Positions 32,224 to 54,039 of a DNA stretch of 57,192 nt are shown here, one piece after another. The position numbers were made by a program, and so were the translations under genes. The notes beneath the pieces were generated by a model. The model was given only the letters and a program-made list of their open reading frames with translations. It was not told where the DNA came from and did no database searches. Location of the stretch: NCBI GenBank assembly GCA_002440235.1, contig DJRZ01000023.1, positions 8,849-66,040 of the forward strand, read 5' to 3'. Every line of letters begins with the position of its first letter. Position 1 is the stretch's first letter. Origin of the DNA: Alphaproteobacteria bacterium UBA6347. GTDB lineage: Bacteria; Pseudomonadota; Alphaproteobacteria; CAAGCB01; CAG-977.

Positions 32224-32300
32224 GGTCCCGTAGCTCAGCTGGATAGAGCAACAGCCTTCTAAGCTGTGGGTCCCGCGTTCGAATCGCGGCGGGATCACCA
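32224..32300 (+). tRNA. tRNA-Arg (anticodon TCT)
   Basis: A full cloverleaf of 77 nt including the encoded CCA. The acceptor stem pairs GGTCCCG with CGGGATC (one G-T pair). The D arm is GCTC/GAGC, the anticodon stem ACAGC/GCTGT with loop CTTCTAA gives anticodon TCT, and the T arm is CCGCG/CGCGG with loop TTCGAAT. It reads AGA/AGG codons. It marks the switch from chromosomal housekeeping genes to conjugation genes and is the likely integration site of the element. Confidence 0.97.
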
Positions 32301-32303
32301 ATA

Positions 32304-32332
32304 AAAAGCCCTTGAAATTCAAGGGCTTTTTT
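32304..32332 (+). terminator. Strong terminator after tRNA-Arg
   Basis: A near-perfect palindrome (AAAAGCCCTTGAA, one central base, TTCAAGGGCTTTT) followed by TTGTTTTT, four bases after the tRNA CCA end. It should end the tRNA transcript, and possibly the fliP transcript as well. Confidence 0.9.
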
Positions 32333-32619
32333 GTTTTTCAACATCGGTTTGAAAACACCGAAAATCAAAAGTGTCTAACAACTGTCTAACAAAAAAATCG
32401 AAAAAAAAGGACTGTCCTCAAAAAAAATTAATCTCCAACCGCCTCTTTTGAAGATTGCGGCAATTGGGAAATTCGGGAAAACAGGGAATCGATTTTGAAC
32501 GAATCGCCCGAATATTGAGATTCATCGCTCTTTCTCAGCATGGAAATTTACGGGAAAATTCGGAAATTCAGTTTCAACAAGAGATACGGCAACCGTTCCG
32601 GTCGAACAGGTTGATTTAA
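32333..32619. other. Non-coding left end of the element
   Basis: This AT-rich stretch of 287 bp between the tRNA terminator and the hairpin leader should contain the left attachment boundary. It holds a tandem GTGTCTAACA / CTGTCTAACA pair (32372-32394 region) and an AGGAC-T-GTCCT palindrome near 32410, which could be recombinase or regulator sites. No gene is supported here. Confidence 0.4.
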
Positions 32620-32822
32620 TTTCTTGCTTGTCAATCCCCGAGCCTTTGGAACAAAAACGGTGTCCCCGACTTTCGCGATGCTGCAAGACGGGCGAGCCCC
32701 CTCCGTTTTTGCTGGGATAATGACAAGCCGCTTTCTTCTCTCCGACGAAGCACCTCGAAAGGGTTTCAGGCGCGATGCCCAAAACCCTTTAACAAGTGCT
32801 TTTTAAGAGAAGGAACAAGACA
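32620..32822 (+). promoter_or_regulatory. 203-bp hairpin leader, copy 1, upstream of ardC
   Basis: This leader is repeated at 35149-35351 with six substitutions and no indels. It can fold into a long hairpin: GCTTGTCA (32626-32633) with TGACAAGC (32721-32728), ATCCC (32634-32638) with GGGAT (32714-32718), and CAAAAACGG (32652-32660) with CCGTTTTTG (32703-32711). A second hairpin, AAAGGGTTT (32758-32766) with AAACCCTTT (32782-32790), encloses GGC/GCC. An extended -10-like TGGGATAAT lies at 32713-32721, and TTGACA reads on the minus strand at 32635-32630. It ends with an AGAAGGA ribosome site before ATG 32823. It is either a structured RNA leader or a promoter active on single-stranded DNA. Confidence 0.75.
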
Positions 32823-33695
32823 ATGACTAATAAAGGCGACCTTATCGAAACCGTGGCAAACACCATTATTGAACGGCTGGAAAACTTTTCGGGCGAATGG
32901 GAAAAGCCGTTCTTTACGTCTTTCGCCCGCAACGTCGCGACGCAAAAAGCTTATCGCGGCATCAACGTCTTGATTTTGAACTTTGCTGCCGCCGTCAACG
33001 GTTTTACGTCGTCTGTTTGGGGAACTTACCAGCAATGGCAGGAAAAAGGCTGTCAGGTCAAAAAAGGCGAGAAGTCAACGACCGTTGTTTTTTGGAAACC
33101 GCTTTCCTACAAATGCGAAGTCGAAAACACCGAAACGGGCGACGTTGAAGAAGTCGAAAACCAGTCTTTTGTCGCCCGCGCTTATGCCGTGTTCAACGGT
33201 TCGCAAGTCGAAGGTTTCTCGGCGGAAAACGAAAGAGCCGATTTTGACATTCAAGCGGACGTGATGAAATTTTTTGACAATACGGACATCGCTTATTTTT
33301 ACGGCGCAAATCTGGCTGGGTACGACAGCCGGCGGAACGTTGTGCTGATGCCCGCGCGAAACGATTTTAAGACGGAAACGGGTTTTGTTTCGACTTTGGC
33401 GCACGAAACCGTCCACGCCATGGGACACAAAAACCGCTTGAACCGCGATATGAAAGGACGGTTCGGAAATGAAGCTTATGCTTTTGAAGAACTGATTGCT
33501 GACATCGGCGCGGGCTTTGTCGCGGGGTATTTGGGCTATGATTATCAGTTTTTAAAGGACAATCTGGCGTATCTGCAAAGCTGGCTGAAAGTTTTGAAAA
33601 ACGACAAGCGCGCGATTTTCAAGGCGTGTTCCGAAGCGCAGAAGGCTTTCGACTATCTGCTGACGTTTCAAGAAACAAACGGAGAAGCGGCTTGA
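32823..33695 (+). CDS. ardC: ArdC-family antirestriction protein
   Basis: A 290-residue protein with the ArdC layout. The N-terminal ssDNA-binding domain (about 5-125) includes AYRGINVLIL, a WGTYQQWQEKG segment and KGEKSTTVVFWKP. The C-terminal metallopeptidase-like domain has zinc site HETVHAMGH (His194, Glu195, His198) and EELIADIGAGF. ArdC proteins bind single-stranded DNA and protect incoming plasmid DNA from restriction in the recipient. I chose ATG 32823 because the same start and leader recur at 35352. The gene lies on the leading-region side of oriT, where such genes are expected. Confidence 0.92.
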   Translation: MTNKGDLIETVANTIIERLENFSGEWEKPFFTSFARNVATQKAYRGINVLILNFAAAVNGFTSSVWGTYQQWQEKGCQVKKGEKSTTVVFWKPLSYKCEVENTETGDVEEVENQSFVARAYAVFNGSQVEGFSAENERADFDIQADVMKFFDNTDIAYFYGANLAGYDSRRNVVLMPARNDFKTETGFVSTLAHETVHAMGHKNRLNRDMKGRFGNEAYAFEELIADIGAGFVAGYLGYDYQFLKDNLAYLQSWLKVLKNDKRAIFKACSEAQKAFDYLLTFQETNGEAA

Positions 33696-33713
33696 TGCCG
33701 CTTCATTTTCCAA

Positions 33714-33759
33714 ATCCGTTCGCCCAACCTCTCCACAACATTGTTGCGCCCGAACGGAT
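33714..33759. repeat. Inverted repeat between ardC and the ATPase gene
   Basis: ATCCGTTCG (33714-33722) and CGAACGGAT (33751-33759) are perfect inverted 9-mers with a 28-bp spacer. No T run follows, so an operator is more likely than a terminator. A related CCCGAACGG core recurs before the HipB-like gene near 55800. Confidence 0.45.
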
Positions 33760-33847
33760 ATGTGTTGCGTCCGCATTCAAATGCGCCTATATTGTTAATA
33801 CGAATTTTTATTGATAACTGTGTTTTTGCGTAATAGGAGTCATTCCC

Positions 33848-35104
33848 ATGCAAGCGATTAAACGCGACATCTATCTGAACAGGCTGATTGAACGCAAGGA
33901 AAACGGAGCGATCAAAGTCATTACGGGCATTCGTCGGTGCGGGAAATCCTATCTTTTGTTCAATTTGTATTACGACTATCTGCTTTCCTGCGGCATCGGC
34001 AAAGACAGAATCATCAAAATCGCGCTTGACGATGAAGAAGCCGAAAATTTAACGGATGCAAAAACTTTGGCGGCTTTTATCAAAGAGCGGCTGAAAGACG
34101 AAAACACGTATTACGTTTTCCTTGACGAAATCCAATTCGTCAAAGATTTTGAGAAAGTTTTGAACAGCTTAAACCGTCTGCCGAATCTGGATATTTACGT
34201 CACGGGCAGCAATTCCAAATTCCTGTCTTCCGATATTTTAACCGAGTTCCGCGGCAGAGGGGACGAAGTTCGCGTCCACCCGCTTTGTTTCGCCGAGTAT
34301 GTTTCGGCATATAAAGGTTCGGCGGCTGACGCTTGGAACGACTATTTCACTTACGGCGGCTTGCCTCAAATACTGACGCGATCGACCGACGAGCTGAAAA
34401 CGCAATATCTGACAAACCTGTTCCAAACGGTTTATCTGGCTGACATTATCGACCGCAATAAAGTTCGGGCGAAAGAAACGCTCAACACCCTTGTCAACGT
34501 TTTAGCGTCGTCCATCGGTTCTTTGACAAACCCGCGAAAACTTGCCGCCGTGTTCGCCCATTCCGGAGACAAGGAAGTGACGGATAAAACCGTCGGCGCG
34601 TATCTGGATTATCTGACGGATTCATTCTTGATCAACAAGGCGGAACGCTATGATATCAAGGGCAAGAAATATATCGCCTCTCCCTATAAATACTACTTTG
34701 AAGATGTCGGACTGCGCAACGCAAGGCTGAATTTCCGCCAGCAGGAAGAAAATCATATTATGGAAAACATCATCTATAACGAATTGCTTGTGCGCGGGTA
34801 CAATGTTGACGTCGGCATTGTCGATTGCTACGACAAGGACGAACAAGGCAAGCAGGTTTTAAAACGCAGGGAAGTCGATTTTGTCTGCAACAAAGGCAGC
34901 CGGCGGTATTACGTTCAATCGGCTTTTGCCATTCCCGACGATGAAAAAATGGCGCAGGAAAAGATGTCTTTGGTCAAGATTAAAGACTCTTTCAAGAAAA
35001 TCATTGTTGTCAAAGACAACATCAAACTCTGGCGGACGGAAGACGGCATTGTCGTTATGGGATTGCAAGAATTTTTGCTGAACCAAAACAGTCTCGAACT
35101 TTGA
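33848..35104 (+). CDS. AAA ATPase with DUF4143 domain (first copy)
   Basis: A 418-residue protein. Walker A is TGIRRCGKSYLL (about residues 26-37), Walker B VFLDEIQFV, and the sensor region YVTGSNSKFL. The C-terminal DUF4143 domain contains an RREVDFVCNKG segment resembling a PD-(D/E)xK-like nuclease core. These AAA_14/DUF4143 proteins are very common on mobile elements and in genomic islands of host-associated bacteria. Their function is not settled; roles as nucleases or in toxin-antitoxin-like systems have been suggested. It shares the family, but little sequence, with the ATPase at 52696. Confidence 0.88.
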   Translation: MQAIKRDIYLNRLIERKENGAIKVITGIRRCGKSYLLFNLYYDYLLSCGIGKDRIIKIALDDEEAENLTDAKTLAAFIKERLKDENTYYVFLDEIQFVKDFEKVLNSLNRLPNLDIYVTGSNSKFLSSDILTEFRGRGDEVRVHPLCFAEYVSAYKGSAADAWNDYFTYGGLPQILTRSTDELKTQYLTNLFQTVYLADIIDRNKVRAKETLNTLVNVLASSIGSLTNPRKLAAVFAHSGDKEVTDKTVGAYLDYLTDSFLINKAERYDIKGKKYIASPYKYYFEDVGLRNARLNFRQQEENHIMENIIYNELLVRGYNVDVGIVDCYDKDEQGKQVLKRREVDFVCNKGSRRYYVQSAFAIPDDEKMAQEKMSLVKIKDSFKKIIVVKDNIKLWRTEDGIVVMGLQEFLLNQNSLEL

Positions 35105-35110
35105 TTTAAC

Positions 35111-35137
35111 CCCGTTTCGGGCGCCCATAAAAACGGG
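35111..35137 (+). terminator. Terminator-like hairpin after the first ATPase gene
   Basis: CCCGTTT and AAACGGG pair around a GGGCGCCC palindrome, followed by CGACTTTTGCTTTT. It separates the ATPase transcript from the second hairpin leader, which begins 11 bp later. Confidence 0.6.
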
Positions 35138-35148
35138 CGACTTTTGCT

Positions 35149-35351
35149 TTTCTTGCTTGTCAATCCCCAAGCCTTTGGAACAAAAACGATGTCCCCGACT
35201 TTCGCGATGCTGCAAGACGGGTGATACCCCTCCGTTTTTGCTGGGATAATGACAAGCCGCTTTCTTCTCTCCGACGAAGCACCTCGAAAGGGTTTCAGGC
35301 GCGATGCCTAAAACCCTTTAACAAGTGCTTTTTAAGAGAAGGAACAAGACA
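35149..35351 (+). promoter_or_regulatory. 203-bp hairpin leader, copy 2, upstream of the DUF2958 gene
   Basis: About 97% identical to 32620-32822 and collinear to the base. The differences fall at copy-1 positions 32640, 32660, 32693, 32696, 32697 and 32780, all in loops, bulges or a terminal pair, so the stems stay intact. The outer stem is GCTTGTCA (35155-35162) with TGACAAGC (35250-35257), and the -10-like TGGGATAAT is at 35242-35250. Identity continues into the first codons of the gene (both proteins begin MT[N/D]KGD). Confidence 0.75.
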
Positions 35352-35765
35352 ATGACTGACAAAGGCGACCAAGCTTTAACCGAATTAAACACAACGCTTC
35401 AACCGTTTATGCCGCATAAACAGGCGCAAATTCTCATTCAAAATCTGACAACTTCCGAAGAAGCCGAAACGTTCGCGGATATTATTCTGACTCTAGCCGA
35501 ACGCGTCAAAGCGATGCCGCAACCGTATGAAACGGACGGACAAGGCAAAGTCGCGACGGCTCAACTGCACTATTTTGTCGGTTCTTATGATGCCTACATC
35601 GTCGAAAAAGACGCGTCCGAAAAACAAATTCAGGCTTTCGGCTGGGCGAGTTTCGGATACGGGTTCGAGTGCGGCTACATCTCGATTGACGAACTTTTGG
35701 ATTTGGCAGAGCTGGACTTGTATTTCACGCCTTGCGCCGTCGCCGAAGCGATTAAGGAGGACTGA
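35352..35765 (+). CDS. DUF2958 family protein
   Basis: A 137-residue protein. The second half matches DUF2958: TAQLHYFVGSYDAYIVEKD, then CGYISIDELLDLAELDLYFTPC. DUF2958 genes are common on conjugative plasmids and elements, often near antirestriction genes; their role is unknown. The start shares its leader and first codons with ardC, which suggests the two are switched on together. The next gene begins 3 bp after its stop. Confidence 0.85.
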   Translation: MTDKGDQALTELNTTLQPFMPHKQAQILIQNLTTSEEAETFADIILTLAERVKAMPQPYETDGQGKVATAQLHYFVGSYDAYIVEKDASEKQIQAFGWASFGYGFECGYISIDELLDLAELDLYFTPCAVAEAIKED

Positions 35766-35768
35766 CCG

Positions 35769-36041
35769 ATGTTGTACTGGGACTTAATCGAGGAGTTTCT
35801 GCCCGACTTTGAAGAACGCGCTGACGTGAAATTCGACACCTCTCTGTTCAGCTTCATTCACGGCGGAGAAGTGCCGGAAGAAGACTTGCCGGCATTAAAA
35901 ACTTTGGCAAAAAGCGGCTGGCTGGCGGAAGTGTTTTTTGCGACGGAAAAGCACCTGCTCAACGAGGCGTTCGAGGCTTATTTTGAAAAGGAAATTGCCC
36001 CGAAAATTTATTACAAGCAAAAGGAATGCGGCTCTGAATAG
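35769..36041 (+). CDS. Small acidic protein of unknown function
   Basis: A 90-residue acidic protein with no membrane segment or recognised motif. It follows the DUF2958 gene by 3 bp with an AAGGAGGA site inside that gene's end, so the two form an operon. It ends inside the terminator before oriT. Being small, acidic and in the leading region, it could be an anti-defence protein, but this is only position-based. Confidence 0.7.
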   Translation: MLYWDLIEEFLPDFEERADVKFDTSLFSFIHGGEVPEEDLPALKTLAKSGWLAEVFFATEKHLLNEAFEAYFEKEIAPKIYYKQKECGSE

Positions 36042-36058
36042 AGCCGCGTCCGTTTTTT
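36028..36058 (+). terminator. Terminator of the leading-region operon
   Basis: GCGGCTC and GAGCCGC pair around TGAATA, followed by GTCCGTTTTTTG. The stop codon of the preceding gene lies in the hairpin. Confidence 0.85.
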
Positions 36059-36060
36059 GA

Positions 36061-36289
36061 AAATCGGTCGCCGCACGCGCGGCGACACCGTTCGCGACAC
36101 CTCTAACAAAGGGCGGTCGGGCGGGTTTAGAGGTGTTTCGGCTGATTTGCAACTGCTTGATTTTATTGTTGAAGGTTTTTGGGCAGGATAGCCTTTTCGT
36201 ATGACGAAAAGCGGCGTTGCGTTCAAATTTTCGTTCGGCTATAATACTCCCGTCACACACATTTGAACGCTTAACTCTGCGAGGCATTT
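36061..36289. other. oriT: Probable origin of transfer (oriT)
   Basis: This non-coding stretch next to mobC and the relaxase gene is packed with inverted repeats: GTCGCCG/CGGCGAC (36067-36086), ACACCTCTAA/TTAGAGGTGT (36097-36106, 36127-36136), TTTTCG/CGAAAA (36194-36210) and GCGTTCAAAT/ATTTGAACGC (36219-36228, 36261-36270). GGGCAGGATAG (36181-36191) equals the RP4/RK2 nic core as I recall it. On the minus strand this reads CTATCCTG|CCC, placing the nick between 36184 and 36183. The TTTTCG repeat sits just 5' of it on that strand, as the TraJ-binding repeat does in RP4. Confidence 0.8.
36217..36270 (+). promoter_or_regulatory. mobC promoter with flanking operator repeat
   Basis: TTGCGT (36217-36222) and TATAAT (36240-36245) are 17 bp apart. 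The perfect inverted repeat GCGTTCAAAT/ATTTGAACGC overlaps the -35 and lies downstream of the start region. Binding of MobC or the relaxosome there would shut off its own synthesis, a common arrangement at oriT. Confidence 0.65.
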
Positions 36290-36619
36290 ATGGCGCGTAT
36301 TGTCAAGTCGTTCAGAATAGAACAAGAAATCTGGGACAGGCTGGAAGCCCGTTCGGGAAACACCTCCGAGCTGGTGCGCCTGTTCATCGTAACGGGGCTT
36401 TTTAAAATGGAACTGCCCCGACAAACCGAAATTGAAAAGCTCTGCGTTATTGAAGATCAGACGCGCCGCATCGGCGTGAACTTGAACCAAGCCGTCAAGG
36501 CTCTGAACGTTTCCTCCGACCACCAGAACGCTTTACCGGAAATCCGGCAAGCCTGCATGGATATACGCTTTTTGCGGCTGGCGATTCATAAATTAGTGAG
36601 CACCTACTATGGAAAATGA
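36290..36619 (+). CDS. mobC: MobC-like relaxosome accessory protein
   Basis: A 109-residue basic protein with a ribbon-helix-helix-like N-terminus (VKSFRIEQEIWDRLEARSGNTSELVRLFI) and the MobC motif RRIGVNLNQAVKALN in the middle. MobC proteins bind oriT and help the relaxase open the DNA. It overlaps the relaxase gene by 11 bp and directly follows the oriT region. Confidence 0.85.
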   Translation: MARIVKSFRIEQEIWDRLEARSGNTSELVRLFIVTGLFKMELPRQTEIEKLCVIEDQTRRIGVNLNQAVKALNVSSDHQNALPEIRQACMDIRFLRLAIHKLVSTYYGK

Positions 36620-37379
36620 ATACGATCTGCTGAAACGGCATTTGCGCGGGACTTATGTGAAGCGGGAAAAATTTCCGCTTTATTACACGCCTCCATGCAA
36701 AAAAGCGGCATCCATAAAATCGTGCGCCCGCCTGTTGCCGGAAGCCGTCGTCAAAGTGGCTTCATACATTAAAACGCCCGCAGAAGCGAAAAACGCCTTG
36801 CTGTATATTGCCCGAAAATCGGAAGGATTAGAGCGGGACGCACTTGTTTGCAATGAAAGTCTTGACTCGCTTCCCGTTTCGGAATTTGACAATGAAATCG
36901 CTTCTTACGCTTTCAAACAGCATCGCAAAAACGGCAATCAAATGGTGCATCTGATCGTGTCTTTCCCGAAGCGAATGAATGTGTCGGAACAGGACGCCTA
37001 CCGATTTATGGGACGATACATGGATCCGTTCGGGAAAAAGGGCTATCGATATTTGTACGCCGTTCACTCGCACCAATCGGCGACGCACGGGCATGTTTTG
37101 CTCTGCCTGTCGAACGGACGGGAACGATTGCAGTTCAAAAAGCCGCAGCTGATCATGCTCCGCCAACATCAGGTCGAAGTCGCCAAAGAGTTCGGCTGGG
37201 AAATGCAGGCGACGCGGTTTCAAGACAGGGATTTTTCGCTGACGCAGATGGTTATTCCGCGCAAGCACAAAACGATCCGGCAGCTTCGTGAGCTTCACGA
37301 ACGGAGGAAACCGAGAGAAAAAGATAGAAACGAGTCTTCAATTTTTGAACGAGTCGTCTATCTATCAAGAGTCTTTTAA
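36609..37379 (+). CDS. Relaxase (MOBP-like), possibly truncated
   Basis: A 256-residue protein with the relaxase core. A candidate catalytic Tyr66 lies in KNALLYIARK (motif I), and a histidine triad region VHSHQSATHGHVLL (His153, His155, His160, His162) matches motif III. VHLIVSFPKRM precedes it. The RP4-type nic match nearby fits the MOBP class. Relaxases usually carry long C-terminal domains; this one ends shortly after the nicking domain, at the point where base composition falls sharply into the restriction island, so the tail may have been lost. MobC overlaps its start. Confidence 0.8.
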   Translation: MENEYDLLKRHLRGTYVKREKFPLYYTPPCKKAASIKSCARLLPEAVVKVASYIKTPAEAKNALLYIARKSEGLERDALVCNESLDSLPVSEFDNEIASYAFKQHRKNGNQMVHLIVSFPKRMNVSEQDAYRFMGRYMDPFGKKGYRYLYAVHSHQSATHGHVLLCLSNGRERLQFKKPQLIMLRQHQVEVAKEFGWEMQATRFQDRDFSLTQMVIPRKHKTIRQLRELHERRKPREKDRNESSIFERVVYLSRVF

Positions 37380-37495: not shown

Positions 37496-40018
37496 ATGAA
37501 AACTTATGTTAGCTTGTTTAGCAGTGCTGGTATAGGTTGCTATGGATTCAAGATGGAGGGTTTTGAGTGCATTGCCACCAACGAAATAATTAAACGTCGC
37601 CTTGATATCCAAAAGTCTAACGGCAAGTGCAAGTATTCGACGGGATATATTTGCGGAGATATTACAAAAGACGAGACAAAAAAACAATTATATGATGAAA
37701 TTGATTTTTGGAAATCAAAAGAAAAAATCAAAAAAGTGGATGTTGTGATTGCTACTCCGCCCTGCCAGGGTATGTCTGTAGCAAATCACAAAAAAACTGA
37801 TACAGAAATTATTCGTAACTCCCTTGTTGTAGAATCGATTAAGATTGTTAAAGCGATTCACCCAAATTTCTTTATATTTGAGAATGTTCCGGCTTTTATG
37901 AAAACGGTTTGTACCGATCTTGATGGTTTAGACAAGCCTATAGCTGAAGCAATCAAAAATAACCTTAGTGCAGACTATTCTTATGCCTATCGAATTATCA
38001 ATTTCAAGAATTATGGGGCCTGTTCAAGCAGAACGAGAACGGTTGTAATTGGTGTAAGCAAGGAGTTTTCTGACGAAGTGTCTCCGTTTGAACTCTACCC
38101 TGATACAAAACCGGAAAAGACTTTGCGCCAAGTTATTGGGGCAATGAAAAGATTGAAAAATTTTTCTGAGATAGATCCGCTTGATATTTACCATTCTTTC
38201 AGAGCGTATCCAGAATATATGCGAGAGTGGATTGCAGATCTGAAAGAAGGTGAATCAGCTTTCGACAATGCCGATGAGAAAAAAAGGCCGCACCAAATTA
38301 TTGATGGGAAAATCGTTCTTAATCAACGGAAGAATGGAGATAAATACCGCAGACAAATTTGGGACAAAGTTGGTCCATGCGTTCACACAAGAAATGATCA
38401 GTTAGCAAGTCAGAATACCATTCATCCAGAAGATGATCGAGTATTCAGTATTCGGGAGCTTATGCGGATGATGACCGTCCCCGATTCATTCAAGTGGAGT
38501 GATGAATCTCTTGAACAACTGAACGAATTGCCAGAATCACAAAAAAGGGCATACTTGAAAAGAGAAGAAATCAAAATTAGACAGTCATTGGGCGAGGCTG
38601 TTCCGACTATCATATTCCAAAAAATTGCGGCTAATATCCGTTCTGTATTAGATACCACCCCCATAAATAGTGCTACTATTAACAGGATGGTTAACCAATA
38701 TAGATTTCAAAGTGTAGACGAGATAATTGCGTTTATTGAGACAAACCCGAAGAATCTTTCCATCTCCGCATTAAGCAGAATCGCAGAAATGTCGAATACA
38801 AGTCGAACAGATAACGCTGCTTTCTACACAAATAAGACTCTAATTACAGAAATAATTAAATCACTTCCGGATATCGAGAAAGACGAAATACGGATATTGG
38901 AACCATCGGCAGGTGTTGGTAATTTTATCCCCCTTATTCTCAAGCGTTTCGAGGGAAAAAATTTAATTATCGACTTGGTTGACATTGATCCAAACAGTTT
39001 AAGAATTGCAAAAGCATTATTGAAAAAGAACGGGCTTCCAGATTCTTGCCATATCAATTATATCGTAGACGATTTTCTACTCCATAAATTTAAAGAAAGA
39101 TACGATTTCATCATCGGTAATCCACCATTTTTCAAAATGAAAAACAATGCCTCATTACTAAAAAAATACCTTGAGTCGGCTATAAATAAAGAAACAACTA
39201 ATATCTGTTCTTTCTTTTTAGATAAGGCTGTAGAGATAGCTGATTATGTAGCGATTGTTTTCCCAAAATTCATTTTAAACACGCCTGAATTTGCTGTGTC
39301 AAGAAGCTATCTTTCCAAGAAAAGAATAGAGTGTATTATTGATTTTGGAGAAAAAGGTTTTCCAGGTGTTTTGATAGAAACGATAGCTTTGTTCGTCAAT
39401 ACTTATGCAAAACCTGAAAAAACGAAAGTTATATCTGTTACACATAATTTCGATATTTTGCAGAAACAATCATATATCTGTGATGAGAAACTACCTTACT
39501 GGATAATATACAGAAATGAGTTGTTTGATTCTGTTTTTCGAAAGATGGACTTTGATTGTTTTACGGTTTTTAGAGATCGTCAGATTACAAATAACAATAC
39601 GTCTTGTAGTGGTGAAATTAGGGTTTTGAAATCGAGAAACATTAGTGATGATGGTGCTAAAATCATTAACATTGATGGTTATGATTCTTACATTAAGAAA
39701 TCAACAGCATTAAGCTTGTCTGTATACGATTATTTGGAACGTAGTGATGTCTATATCACTCCCAATATGACTTATAAACCAAGAGTAATGAAAAAACCTA
39801 AAGGTCTATTGGTAAATGGCTCCCTCGCTATTCTGATTCCAAAGAACGGAATAAAGCTTTCAAAAGAACAATGCTTATACTTTTCAAGTAACGAATATAG
39901 ACAATTCTATCAGATTGCGAGAAACTATCAAACCCGTTCTCTAAATGTTGATGCTTGTTCTGTATTTTTCTATGGAGCACTACACGATGGGAAAAAGTTT
40001 TCTCCTGCTTATAAGTAA
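37496..40018 (+). CDS. Fused m5C + m6A DNA methyltransferase
   Basis: An 840-residue protein with two complete catalytic modules. Residues 1-385 are a cytosine-5 methyltransferase: motif I SLFSSAGIG (6-14), motif IV TPPCQG with catalytic Cys90, ENVPAF (129-134), SRTRTVVIG, and a closing GEAVPT motif near 366. Residues 440-640 are an N6-adenine methyltransferase: motif I LEPSAGVGNF (468-477) and motif IV NPPF (542-545). A 200-residue C-terminal target-recognition region follows. Fusions of both chemistries suit an asymmetric recognition site, where each strand needs a different mark. Its partner nuclease is the next gene. Confidence 0.9.
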   Translation: MKTYVSLFSSAGIGCYGFKMEGFECIATNEIIKRRLDIQKSNGKCKYSTGYICGDITKDETKKQLYDEIDFWKSKEKIKKVDVVIATPPCQGMSVANHKKTDTEIIRNSLVVESIKIVKAIHPNFFIFENVPAFMKTVCTDLDGLDKPIAEAIKNNLSADYSYAYRIINFKNYGACSSRTRTVVIGVSKEFSDEVSPFELYPDTKPEKTLRQVIGAMKRLKNFSEIDPLDIYHSFRAYPEYMREWIADLKEGESAFDNADEKKRPHQIIDGKIVLNQRKNGDKYRRQIWDKVGPCVHTRNDQLASQNTIHPEDDRVFSIRELMRMMTVPDSFKWSDESLEQLNELPESQKRAYLKREEIKIRQSLGEAVPTIIFQKIAANIRSVLDTTPINSATINRMVNQYRFQSVDEIIAFIETNPKNLSISALSRIAEMSNTSRTDNAAFYTNKTLITEIIKSLPDIEKDEIRILEPSAGVGNFIPLILKRFEGKNLIIDLVDIDPNSLRIAKALLKKNGLPDSCHINYIVDDFLLHKFKERYDFIIGNPPFFKMKNNASLLKKYLESAINKETTNICSFFLDKAVEIADYVAIVFPKFILNTPEFAVSRSYLSKKRIECIIDFGEKGFPGVLIETIALFVNTYAKPEKTKVISVTHNFDILQKQSYICDEKLPYWIIYRNELFDSVFRKMDFDCFTVFRDRQITNNNTSCSGEIRVLKSRNISDDGAKIINIDGYDSYIKKSTALSLSVYDYLERSDVYITPNMTYKPRVMKKPKGLLVNGSLAILIPKNGIKLSKEQCLYFSSNEYRQFYQIARNYQTRSLNVDACSVFFYGALHDGKKFSPAYK

Positions 40019-52695: not shown

Positions 52696-54039
52696 TCAAA
52701 AATTCACGTCCACAGCCACTTTCAAACCGCTTAAATCCCGCTGTTTGAAAAACATCGCCATGTACCACGGCAGATAAAGAATCCGCCCGCTTGTTTCGAT
52801 ATTGCCCGAGCAAAAAACAACGCCTTGTTCCAAAGCCCATTCTTCAACGCTTAAAGCTTTATCCAAAGCGGCGTGTTTTTTGTAATCCTTGCCCGATTTG
52901 ATTTCAACGGGAACGACCTTGTTCCCGCGCTGAACGACAAAATCCAATTCCCCGACGCTTTTTTTATTCAGATAGCGAAGCGCGAAACCGTTCGCTTTTA
53001 ATATCTGCGCGAACACGTTTTCCAGAACGCCGCCCATATTGACCGCCATATTGCCTTGCAAAATATCGAACTGGACGTTCTCCATTCCCATTGCGCAAAG
53101 CAACCCCGTATCGTTCATAAACAGCTTGAACAAACGACTCTGTTCGTTCATCTTCAACGGGATTTTAGGTTCGGACAAATTATAGCACGGTAATGCGACA
53201 CCCGCGTCCTGCAACCATAGAAAGGCGTCTTCGTATTCGCGCAGACGCACTTTTTTATCAATGGCAGCCAAGGAGAACCGTCTGTTTTTATCGTCCAGCT
53301 GCGCCGGAATTTGATCGAAAATATTTTTAACTTTCGCTTTCTTTTCCCGCGTGTATTGGCTGATATCCTGTTGGTATTGCGCCAGAATGTCCTTTTGCAA
53401 AGCGACGACCCGTCCGATGTCGTGCGTGTCGATAAAAGTCTGAACAACCGCGGGCATTCCGCCGACAATGACATAATACCGGAACAGATCGGTCATTTTA
53501 TTATGAACAACCTCCGATACCGATTCGTGCCGGTCGAAACAATCGTTCAAATATTTGATCGTTTCCGGCTGAACGCCGTTCGCCAGACAAAACTCTTCAA
53601 AATCCATCGGATACATTTGAAAGGTTTGTTCGTACCCGACGGGAAAAGACGGAACGTGTTTATAATTCACGCCCAGCAAAGAACCGGATTCAATGTAATC
53701 GAAACGCCCGTCGTCAACCAGAAACTTGATTGCCGTCCGCGCGTTCGGACATTCTTGGATCTCGTCCAGAAAAACAAGTGTTTTGCCTTTCTCCAAAGAT
53801 GTTCCCAAAAAAGCGGTCAGGTTCATAACCAACGTGTCCGCGTTCAAATCGCCTTTGAAAATGTCCGCCGCGCTTGGCTGCGTCAAAAAATTGATCTCGA
53901 CGAATTTGTCATAGTTTGCTTTTCCGAATTGGCGCACCAAGTATGTTTTCCCGATTTGACGCGCCCCTGTCACCAGCAACGCTTTTTTATCGGGATTGTT
54001 TTTCCATTCTTGAAATTTTTGCTCGGCTTTCCTGAACAT
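52696..54039 (-). CDS. AAA ATPase with DUF4143 domain (second copy)
   Basis: A 447-residue protein. Walker A is VTGARQIGKTYLV (about residues 23-35), Walker B VFLDEIQECP, and the sensor YIESGSLLG. The C-terminal DUF4143 part ends in GELDFVVQRGNKVVPVEIKSG, the Glu-Asp ... Glu-x-Lys pattern of PD-(D/E)xK nucleases. It interrupts the secretion operon between the virB7-like/HTH genes and virB8. Three 13-bp repeats lie before it (54061-54140). It is cargo rather than a secretion part. Confidence 0.88.
   Translation of the reverse strand: MFRKAEQKFQEWKNNPDKKALLVTGARQIGKTYLVRQFGKANYDKFVEINFLTQPSAADIFKGDLNADTLVMNLTAFLGTSLEKGKTLVFLDEIQECPNARTAIKFLVDDGRFDYIESGSLLGVNYKHVPSFPVGYEQTFQMYPMDFEEFCLANGVQPETIKYLNDCFDRHESVSEVVHNKMTDLFRYYVIVGGMPAVVQTFIDTHDIGRVVALQKDILAQYQQDISQYTREKKAKVKNIFDQIPAQLDDKNRRFSLAAIDKKVRLREYEDAFLWLQDAGVALPCYNLSEPKIPLKMNEQSRLFKLFMNDTGLLCAMGMENVQFDILQGNMAVNMGGVLENVFAQILKANGFALRYLNKKSVGELDFVVQRGNKVVPVEIKSGKDYKKHAALDKALSVEEWALEQGVVFCSGNIETSGRILYLPWYMAMFFKQRDLSGLKVAVDVNF

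What the first reader, a model, noticed from the sequence alone, without database searches (positions are those of the whole stretch)
32620..35351. Duplicated 203-bp hairpin leader before ardC and the DUF2958 gene: candidate single-stranded-DNA promoter or structured RNA
Two collinear copies differ at six positions with no indels, while the genes they precede are unrelated beyond the first six codons. Three nested stems plus a second hairpin can form, and all six differences avoid the stems or sit at a stem end. The nic site at 36183/36184 makes this the leading region, and the transferred (minus) strand is the template for both genes. F-plasmid Frpo and ssi-type elements are known folded ssDNA promoters that drive early antirestriction genes in the recipient. 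The same job is proposed here. A cis-acting RNA in ordinary transcription is the alternative.
Basis: partly seen in the sequence, partly recalled or inferred. Interest (0 to 1): 0.88.

Follow-up and report, generated by a model that had tools for sequence, protein, structure and literature searches.

The report
Folded leader of conjugation early-entry genes
A 200-base DNA leader that folds into hairpins stands in front of two early-entry genes of this mobile element, and relatives of it stand in front of antirestriction and other settling-in genes on many plasmids, which suggests a little-known switch that turns such genes on when the DNA first enters a new cell as a single strand.

Summary
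In detail: 32620-32822 and 35149-35351 differ at six positions with no indels, and both fold better than 200 shuffles. Its hairpin-1 core is a family: 72 matches in 47 of 50 loci searched (most were fetched because they carry it) and 15 of 398 genomes of the phylum. BLAST relatives lie mostly on alphaproteobacterial plasmids, a few on beta- and gammaproteobacterial ones. It precedes ArdC, ArdA, ArdB-type, ParB, DUF2958, DUF3768, DUF3846, DUF932-like and methylase genes; in 47 of 50 measured copies the start codon is 80-111 nt on. The hairpin covaries: score 0.513 against 0.143 in shuffles. In 20 of 23 oriented copies the inferred transferred strand is the template. Sense A.C cells outnumber G.U, unlike RNA, but two columns carry much of that. 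No match in the viral and phage searches made, no Rfam match, no description found. I favour a promoter-like signal on the incoming single strand (0.48). It lacks the -35/-10 pair, so it is not filed as Frpo. An RNA leader is the main rival: in the window's family hairpin 2 hides the Shine-Dalgarno.

The parts
32620..32822 (+). leader copy 1, upstream of ardC
   Evidence: R1 match 32621-32825, 204 bits
32626..32728 (+). hairpin 1 of copy 1 (nested stems and conserved inner helix)
32650..32713 (+). family core of hairpin 1 (outer stem plus TCCCC..TGCA..GGGNGA)
   Evidence: R2 match 63.6 bits, E 4.5e-14
32629..32634 (-). TTGACA on the transferred strand at the base of hairpin 1; no -10 partner inside the duplex
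   Evidence: 13 of 14 copies of the window's family; absent from the diverged members' cores
32732..32815 (+). hairpin 2 of copy 1; its 3' arm holds the Shine-Dalgarno-like AGAAGGA (32808-32814)
   Evidence: Shine-Dalgarno pairing probability 1.0
32823..33695 (+). ardC (ArdcN + zincin-like metallopeptidase)
   Evidence: Pfam PF08401 1.1e-34, PF18818 2.3e-36
33848..35104 (+). AAA_14/DUF4143 gene between the two leaders, without a leader of its own
   Evidence: no R1 or R2 match directly upstream
35122..35139 (+). terminator-like hairpin just before leader copy 2
   Evidence: 10 such sites found against 7.4 by chance
35149..35351 (+). leader copy 2, upstream of the DUF2958-like gene
   Evidence: R1 match 35150-35354, 210.8 bits
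35155..35257 (+). hairpin 1 of copy 2
35179..35242 (+). family core of copy 2
   Evidence: R2 match 61.8 bits, E 1.4e-13
35261..35344 (+). hairpin 2 of copy 2
35352..35765 (+). DUF2958-like gene
   Evidence: translation; no Pfam hit; E 2e-4 to a DUF2958 protein
35769..36041 (+). 90-aa gene next to the DUF2958-like gene
   Evidence: 64-92% identity in L009-L014
36184..36190 (-). nic-like motif; inferred cut 36183/36184, leading region to the left, minus strand transferred
   Evidence: recurs in L009, L010, L013, not in L014; MOBP nic consensus recalled
36290..36619 (+). MobC-like gene
   Evidence: below Pfam cut-off
36609..37379 (+). relaxase (MobA/VirD2-like)
   Evidence: PF03432 1e-11
32224..32297 (+). 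tRNA beside which the element lies

Best explanation
The repeat is one member of a multi-hairpin control element of establishment genes in conjugative elements of Alphaproteobacteria, with some beta- and gammaproteobacterial plasmids. SHOWN: it lies 80-111 nt before antirestriction, ParB-like and other leading-region-type genes; its hairpin is kept by compensating changes; it is usually oriented so that the inferred transferred strand is the template. INFERRED: after nicking near 36183/36184 the minus strand enters the recipient, hairpin 1 folds on it at once and is recognised there, most likely by RNA polymerase, and transcription runs out of the hairpin into ardC and the DUF2958-like gene before the complementary strand exists. 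Conversion to double strand removes the hairpin, so expression is a pulse. Hairpins 2 and 3 would lie in the transcribed 5' UTR, where hairpin 2 may act as RNA.
For: Covariation: A6, 30 copies, 21 pairs: 90.0% of cells paired; 155 cells changed on both sides (shuffles 52.2); score 0.513 against 0.143+-0.014 (shuffles) and 0.09-0.17 (slid). Gene association: ArdC, ArdA, ArdB-type, ParB, DUF2958, DUF3768, DUF3846, DUF932-like, DUF4942, N6 methylase (Pfam; annotations). Spacing 80-111 nt in 47 of 50. Orientation: transferred strand as template in 20 of 23 copies of eight sources, direction taken from relaxase genes and nic-like motifs. Searches outside conjugative DNA were empty: 0 of 23 viral-contig loci with ArdC- or DUF2958-like genes, 0 strict-pattern hits in viral contigs, no BLAST hit of three leaders in phage records. 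Wobble: sense A.C 42 events against G.U 16 in 27 clusters; 10 tRNA acceptor stems show the reverse, G.U 5 and A.C 1. No double-strand promoter above chance in the window.
Against: No transcript evidence of any kind. No -35/-10 in the family core (0 of 72). All 24 inner-helix A.C events are in two columns that may be an internal loop; the outer helix alone gives 18 against 9 (p 0.12). Single-strand folding energy does not tell the strands apart once composition is controlled (-2.18 against -1.65 kcal/mol). Two covariation measures did not clearly exceed shuffles: pairs changed on both sides (13, reached by 40 of 500) and pair types (32, by 490 of 500). Hairpin 2 of the window's family holds fixed sense G.U pairs and hides the Shine-Dalgarno, both RNA-like. 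Three of 23 copies point away: in each of two related Caulobacter plasmids one beside nic, before a MerR-like gene that looks frame-broken in L076, and one in pDE2 without a clear gene. The strict pattern sees only the GC-rich form, not the window's own. Three of 11 plasmid regions fetched by BLAST hit (L094-L096) have no R2 match.
Confidence: 0.48

Rival explanations
1. Cis-acting RNA leader: the hairpins are transcribed from an upstream double-strand promoter and control translation or termination of the early genes, for instance by hiding the Shine-Dalgarno sequence.
For: Lies before the gene at a fixed distance from ATG; sense RNA folds strongly. In the five copies of the window's family that were folded the Shine-Dalgarno-like hexamer is paired with probability 0.99-1.0, and 9 of 25 copies overall are at 0.7 or more. 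Hairpin 2 keeps sense G.U pairs.
Against: Hiding is not general: in 4 of 25 copies the pairing probability is 0.3 or less, and most others lie between (the L051 start entered there was off). Outer helix of hairpin 1 has few G.U and more A.C. No match in the viral and phage searches though ArdC occurs there.
Confidence: 0.3
2. Read-through insulator or repressible double-strand regulatory region, as for EGeRS1 on pLS20: it blocks transcription from outside and keeps establishment genes silent in settled cells.
For: EGeRS1 is a repeated, inverted-repeat-rich region before ardC and other establishment operons that blocks read-through (PMC8708921, passages).
Against: Stems of copies in one plasmid differ in sequence while staying paired, so they are not plain operators. 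In pLS20 the transferred strand is the non-template, here it is the template in 20 of 23.
Confidence: 0.1
3. Single-strand initiation site for primase: the folded transferred strand starts complementary-strand synthesis.
For: Acts on the same strand; several hairpins in a row; Frpo is described as also making primers (title of Masai and Arai 1997 in a reference list; not read).
Against: One copy per early gene at a fixed distance from ATG is not needed for priming. R2 finds nothing in phage G4, which has an annotated complementary-strand origin.
Confidence: 0.09
4. Selfish palindrome spread by a transposase-like enzyme, parked before genes without function.
For: Multi-copy, near-identical copies in one plasmid; copies shuffle between genes; 4 of 46 copies have no ORF of 45 codons behind them.
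Against: Spacing and gene class and covariation.
Confidence: 0.03

Closest known systems
Frpo / ssi single-strand promoters of F and ColIb-P9
   Same: Hairpin on the transferred strand before leading-region genes; the F stretch read here holds antirestriction, ParB-like, DUF932 and methylase genes, as the genes behind our element.
   Different: No -35/-10 hexamers in the family core; R2 finds nothing in 20,001 bases of F.
EGeRS1 of pLS20-family plasmids
   Same: Repeated inverted-repeat region before ardC and other establishment operons; no constitutive sigma-A promoter found there.
   Different: 420-751 bp on Bacillus plasmids; the transferred strand is the non-template there.
STAXI motif (RF01728)
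   Same: Structured repeat near antirestriction and ssb genes; its authors considered single-stranded DNA but favoured RNA (passage).
   Different: Tandem pseudoknots in Enterobacteriales; no Rfam match in the stretches searched here.

Membership tests
Frpo/ssi single-strand promoters | lies before a leading-region gene whose template is the transferred strand | tested here: met
   20 of 23 oriented copies; window 2 of 2. One L075 copy may lie outside the leading region
Frpo/ssi single-strand promoters | single strand folds into a promoter-mimicking hairpin | tested here: inconclusive
   the hairpin folds and covaries but promoter mimicry is not seen
Frpo/ssi single-strand promoters | -35 and -10 consensus in the stem | tested here: not met
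   0 of 72 cores hold either hexamer exactly; promoter scan of the window at chance. TTGACA alone stands at the stem base in 13 of 14 copies of the window's family
Frpo/ssi single-strand promoters | sequence homology to a known Frpo | tested here: inconclusive
   R2 0 matches in 20,001 bases of F; the individual Frpo sequences were not fetched or aligned
Frpo/ssi single-strand promoters | RNA made from the folded single strand | not testable with these tools
   needs in vitro transcription or early-entry RNA-seq
EGeRS1 | repeated inverted-repeat region before establishment operons | tested here: met
EGeRS1 | transferred strand is the non-template | tested here: not met
   20 of 23 copies the other way
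STAXI (RF01728) | match to the Rfam model | tested here: not met
   window and seven loci searched
cis-regulatory RNA | helices kept with G.U preferred to A.C on the sense strand | tested here: inconclusive
   hairpin 1: G.U 16, A.C 42 events, opposite to RNA; hairpin 2 of the window's family has fixed G.U pairs
cis-regulatory RNA | hides the Shine-Dalgarno throughout the family | tested here: not met
   paired at 0.7 or more in 9 of 25, at 0.3 or less in 4 of 25; strong in the window's own family
G4-type primase origin | similarity to the phage G4 origin | tested here: not met
   R2 0 matches in phage G4; the converse model was not built

The most novel reading that the evidence does not exclude
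A second, independent family of single-stranded-DNA promoters, without sigma-70 hexamers, read through a conserved hairpin core (TCCCC..TGCA(A/G)G..GGGNGAT), drives early antirestriction and ParB-like genes in conjugative elements across Alphaproteobacteria and beyond.
Probability: 0.4. Interest if true: 0.92.

Novelty: new variant of a known kind. Interest (0 to 1): 0.8.

Why it matters
How conjugative elements outside Enterobacteria express antirestriction genes before their DNA is double-stranded is, as far as I know, largely open. The two published scans whose passages I read looked for Frpo by BLAST, one also for -35/-10 in hairpins, and would probably miss this family. The covariance model gives a testable marker of leading regions, points to early genes of unknown function (DUF3768, DUF3846, DUF4942, DUF2958), and makes single-strand transcription in Alphaproteobacteria directly testable.

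Tried and rejected
Exact pattern GGTTTCAGGCGCGATGCC in viral contigs gave 3 hits that by eye share nothing else with the leader. BLAST of the window leader found nothing in plasmids or phages; only the diverged relatives led on. Folding energy of the two strands as a strand test was dropped: composition explains most of the difference. Operator-palindrome reading rejected: stems vary in sequence and stay paired. Shine-Dalgarno hiding as the general mechanism is not supported (4 of 25 free, 9 of 25 strongly paired) but is strong in the window's family, so it is not excluded there. The pattern search over 385 genomes found 3 against 7 of 385 by R1: too strict. A higher earlier figure in my notebook for viral loci (27) was a miscount; it is 23.

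Rows dropped before counts. Spacing uses 50 copies with an identifiable start, values entered by hand. Left out are, among others, L077 28354, L091, L068, L070, L092, L081 26964 (no ORF or a tiny or doubtful one), L074 (IS-interrupted), L079 14258, L097 3994, L045, L046, L038, L076 6184, L076 10331, L104, L105, L107, L108 and the weak matches L111-L114 and L117. Orientation uses eight sources with a placed relaxase (window, L013, L074-L077, L079, L082), entered by hand; related loci L009-L012 and L014 were not added; L076 and L082 are relatives; no nic motif was found in L079, so its direction rests on gene order. Wobble counts use 66 distinct of 72 rows. One search lists 46 of the 47 matches (L046 left out). 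Shine-Dalgarno folds use 25 chosen copies.
Full report
OBSERVATION. The window holds a conjugative element beside a tRNA gene: ardC, an AAA_14/DUF4143 gene, a DUF2958-like gene, mobC, relaxase and T4SS genes. Two 203-nt leaders stand before ardC and the DUF2958-like gene with six differences and no indels; the similarity runs through six codons. Sense RNA and minus-strand DNA of each copy fold better than all of 200 shuffles.

IT IS A FAMILY. BLAST of the leader found nothing in plasmids or phages and Rfam nothing over it. Relatives of the DUF2958-like protein in genome contigs gave six close loci, L009-L014. In L011-L014 the leader stands before both genes. L009 holds it before its DUF2958-like gene, with no ardC found in the locus. 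L010 is cut by a contig end, so only the leader's 3' end is seen. Of 12 held genomes of that family, 7 have a match. One, L051, is 75% alike over the aligned core and has the same layout, with z -9.9 as RNA. Model R1, run on 385 genomes of the class, matched 7, among them copies before a ParB-type gene and a DUF932-like gene in one genome (L066) and before ardC in two others (L067 by Pfam, L069 by eye). BLAST with leaders of L067, L066, L080 and L106 gave 33, 42, 61 and 78 plasmid records, mostly alphaproteobacterial (Sphingobium, Paracoccus, Rhizobium, Caulobacter and others), with Thiothrix, Sedimenticola and Tenderia (gamma) and Nitrosospira (beta). Copies are multiple: Tardibacter pHSL1 and Sphingobium baderi pDE2 have four each. 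Not every BLAST hit is a full member: of 11 regions fetched, three (L094-L096) have no R2 match.

ANATOMY (sense strand). Outer stem of free sequence; TCCCC-N-N-C(C/T)T; variable loop; TGCA(A/G)G-N-C-GGG-N-GA; second outer arm; in the GC-rich members a linker near TTGCTACCCC, a small hairpin with loop TCGCC and a third variable hairpin; Shine-Dalgarno; ATG. By eye the window's CTCTCCGACGAAGCA resembles the TCTCGCCGACGGGCA of hairpin 2 elsewhere.

STRUCTURE TEST. On 30 copies (A6), 21 named pairs: 90.0% of cells paired (shuffles 69.2), 155 cells changed on both sides (52.2), covariation score 0.513 (0.143+-0.014), each reached by 0 of 500 shuffles; partners slid by 1-3 columns give scores of 0.09-0.17. 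Two measures were not above shuffles in the same way: 13 pairs changed on both sides (11.3; 40 of 500 reached it) and 32 further pair types (35.9; 490 of 500). The alignment is MAFFT's, not fitted to the structure. R2 matched 15 of 398 genomes of the phylum at E<=0.01, two of them weakly (9e-4, 0.0048), with strict filters. In 812 kb of held loci it gave 47 matches, none weaker than 5e-9 at a limit of 0.1, and in 50 loci 72 matches, 47 of the 50 having one. Most of those loci were fetched because they carry the element, so this is not prevalence.

GENES BEHIND IT. Pfam: ArdC (window, L067, L100), ArdA (L106, L109, L086), Antirestrict PF03230 (L084), DUF2958 (L080), DUF3846 (L089), N6 methylase (L075), DUF3768 (L079), DUF4942 (L080, second gene after the element), ParB (L110, L077); L066's ParB-type and DUF932 hits are below the curated cut-offs; four proteins had no family (L081, L080:24108, L079:16079, P0001). 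Of 46 copies listed, four had no ORF of 45 codons or more (L068, L070, L092, L081 26964), and several others are degenerate or of doubtful frame. Spacing from the core to the start codon: 47 of 50 at 80-111 nt, three at 161-162. The F stretch that I fetched holds antirestriction, ParB-type, DUF932 and methylase genes in the same array.

STRAND. Nic-like motifs and relaxase genes give the transferred strand; it is the template for 20 of 23 copies in eight sources (p 0.0005 if independent, which they are not). Exceptions: one inverted copy beside nic in each of two related Caulobacter plasmids, before a MerR-like gene (apparently frame-broken in L076), and one pDE2 copy without a clear gene. Wobble: a sense A.C cell is a T.G wobble on the transferred strand, a sense G.U cell an A.C mismatch there. 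In 66 distinct copies, 27 clusters: A.C 42 events, G.U 16, p 0.0009. But all 24 inner-helix A.C events sit in columns 19 and 20, which may simply be an internal loop; the outer helix alone gives 18 against 9, p 0.12. Ten tRNA acceptor stems gave G.U 5, A.C 1, a small control. DNA folding energy did not discriminate after composition control.

RNA-LEVEL SIGNS. Hairpin 2 of the window's family holds fixed sense G.U pairs, and there the Shine-Dalgarno-like hexamer is paired with probability 0.99-1.0 in the five copies folded. Over 25 chosen copies it is 0.7 or more in 9 and 0.3 or less in 4, so hiding is not a family feature. A DNA-like hairpin 1 and an RNA-like hairpin 2 would fit a start site between them; this is a guess.

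PROMOTER SIGNS. 0 of 72 cores hold TTGACA or TATAAT on either strand. In the window's family TTGACA stands on the transferred strand at the base of hairpin 1 in 13 of 14 copies, but a -10 at the usual distance would lie outside the hairpin. The promoter scan of 32300-36320 found 4 sites against 3.6 by chance, one of them inside copy 2.

CONTROLS. None of 23 viral-contig loci with ArdC- or DUF2958-like genes (L001-L005, L017-L034) has a match. No viral contig matches the strict pattern, which sees only the GC-rich form. Phage records have no BLAST match to three leaders. The F stretch and phage G4 have no match to R2.

EVOLUTION. Leaders do not group by gene or element: L013's ardC leader is closest to L009's DUF leader (98.1%), L012's ardC leader to L013's DUF leader (95.8%), while the window pair is 97.1% alike. 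They behave as interchangeable modules.

LITERATURE (passages seen, no paper read whole). PMC11541004 sought Frpo/ssi by BLAST and by -35/-10 plus fold; PMC12826799 ran those sequences on PLSDB; PMC8708921 describes EGeRS1; PMC2864571 describes STAXI; PMC7213743 reports that ardC expression is required in the recipient (abstract start, passages). Searches showed no description of this element; their listings were capped and most subscription papers are not in the library, so this is not proof of novelty.

VERDICT. A real, conserved, structured control element of establishment genes (about 0.95). Action on the incoming single strand is the best reading (0.48), an RNA leader the main rival (0.3). 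On checking, moved these by two to three points from 0.5 and 0.27, and the novel case from 0.42 to 0.4, because the Shine-Dalgarno is strongly hidden in the window's own family.

Noticed in passing
window 37496-40015: Methylase gene with C5 and Eco57I-type domains is 99.8% identical at protein level to L010 2264-4783 while the neighbouring relaxase is only about 64% identical: a recent swap.
   Followed up: no
window 33848-35104 and 52696-54039: Two AAA_14/DUF4143 genes in the window; the first sits between the two leaders without a leader.
   Followed up: no
P0076, P0078, P0079: Near-identical insertion of about 35 residues in ArdC homologues at the same site.
   Followed up: no
L046 804-971: Leader cut after hairpin 1 and followed by what looks like the inside of a DUF2958-like gene, divergent from a gene that looks like umuC (by eye).
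   Followed up: partly
L070 13113-13180 and L068 576-647: Diverged copies without a long ORF behind them; L070 has a 25-codon hydrophobic ORF and a tRNA gene about 0.75 kb upstream.
   Followed up: no
L076 10331-10400 (-), L082 11963-12033 (+): Inverted copy beside the nic-like motif, before a MerR-like gene in L082.
   Followed up: partly
L094, L095, L096: BLAST relatives of the leader of L066 without an R2 core; L095 and L096 still stand before an ArdC-type and a DUF932 gene, so a core-less form may exist.
   Followed up: no
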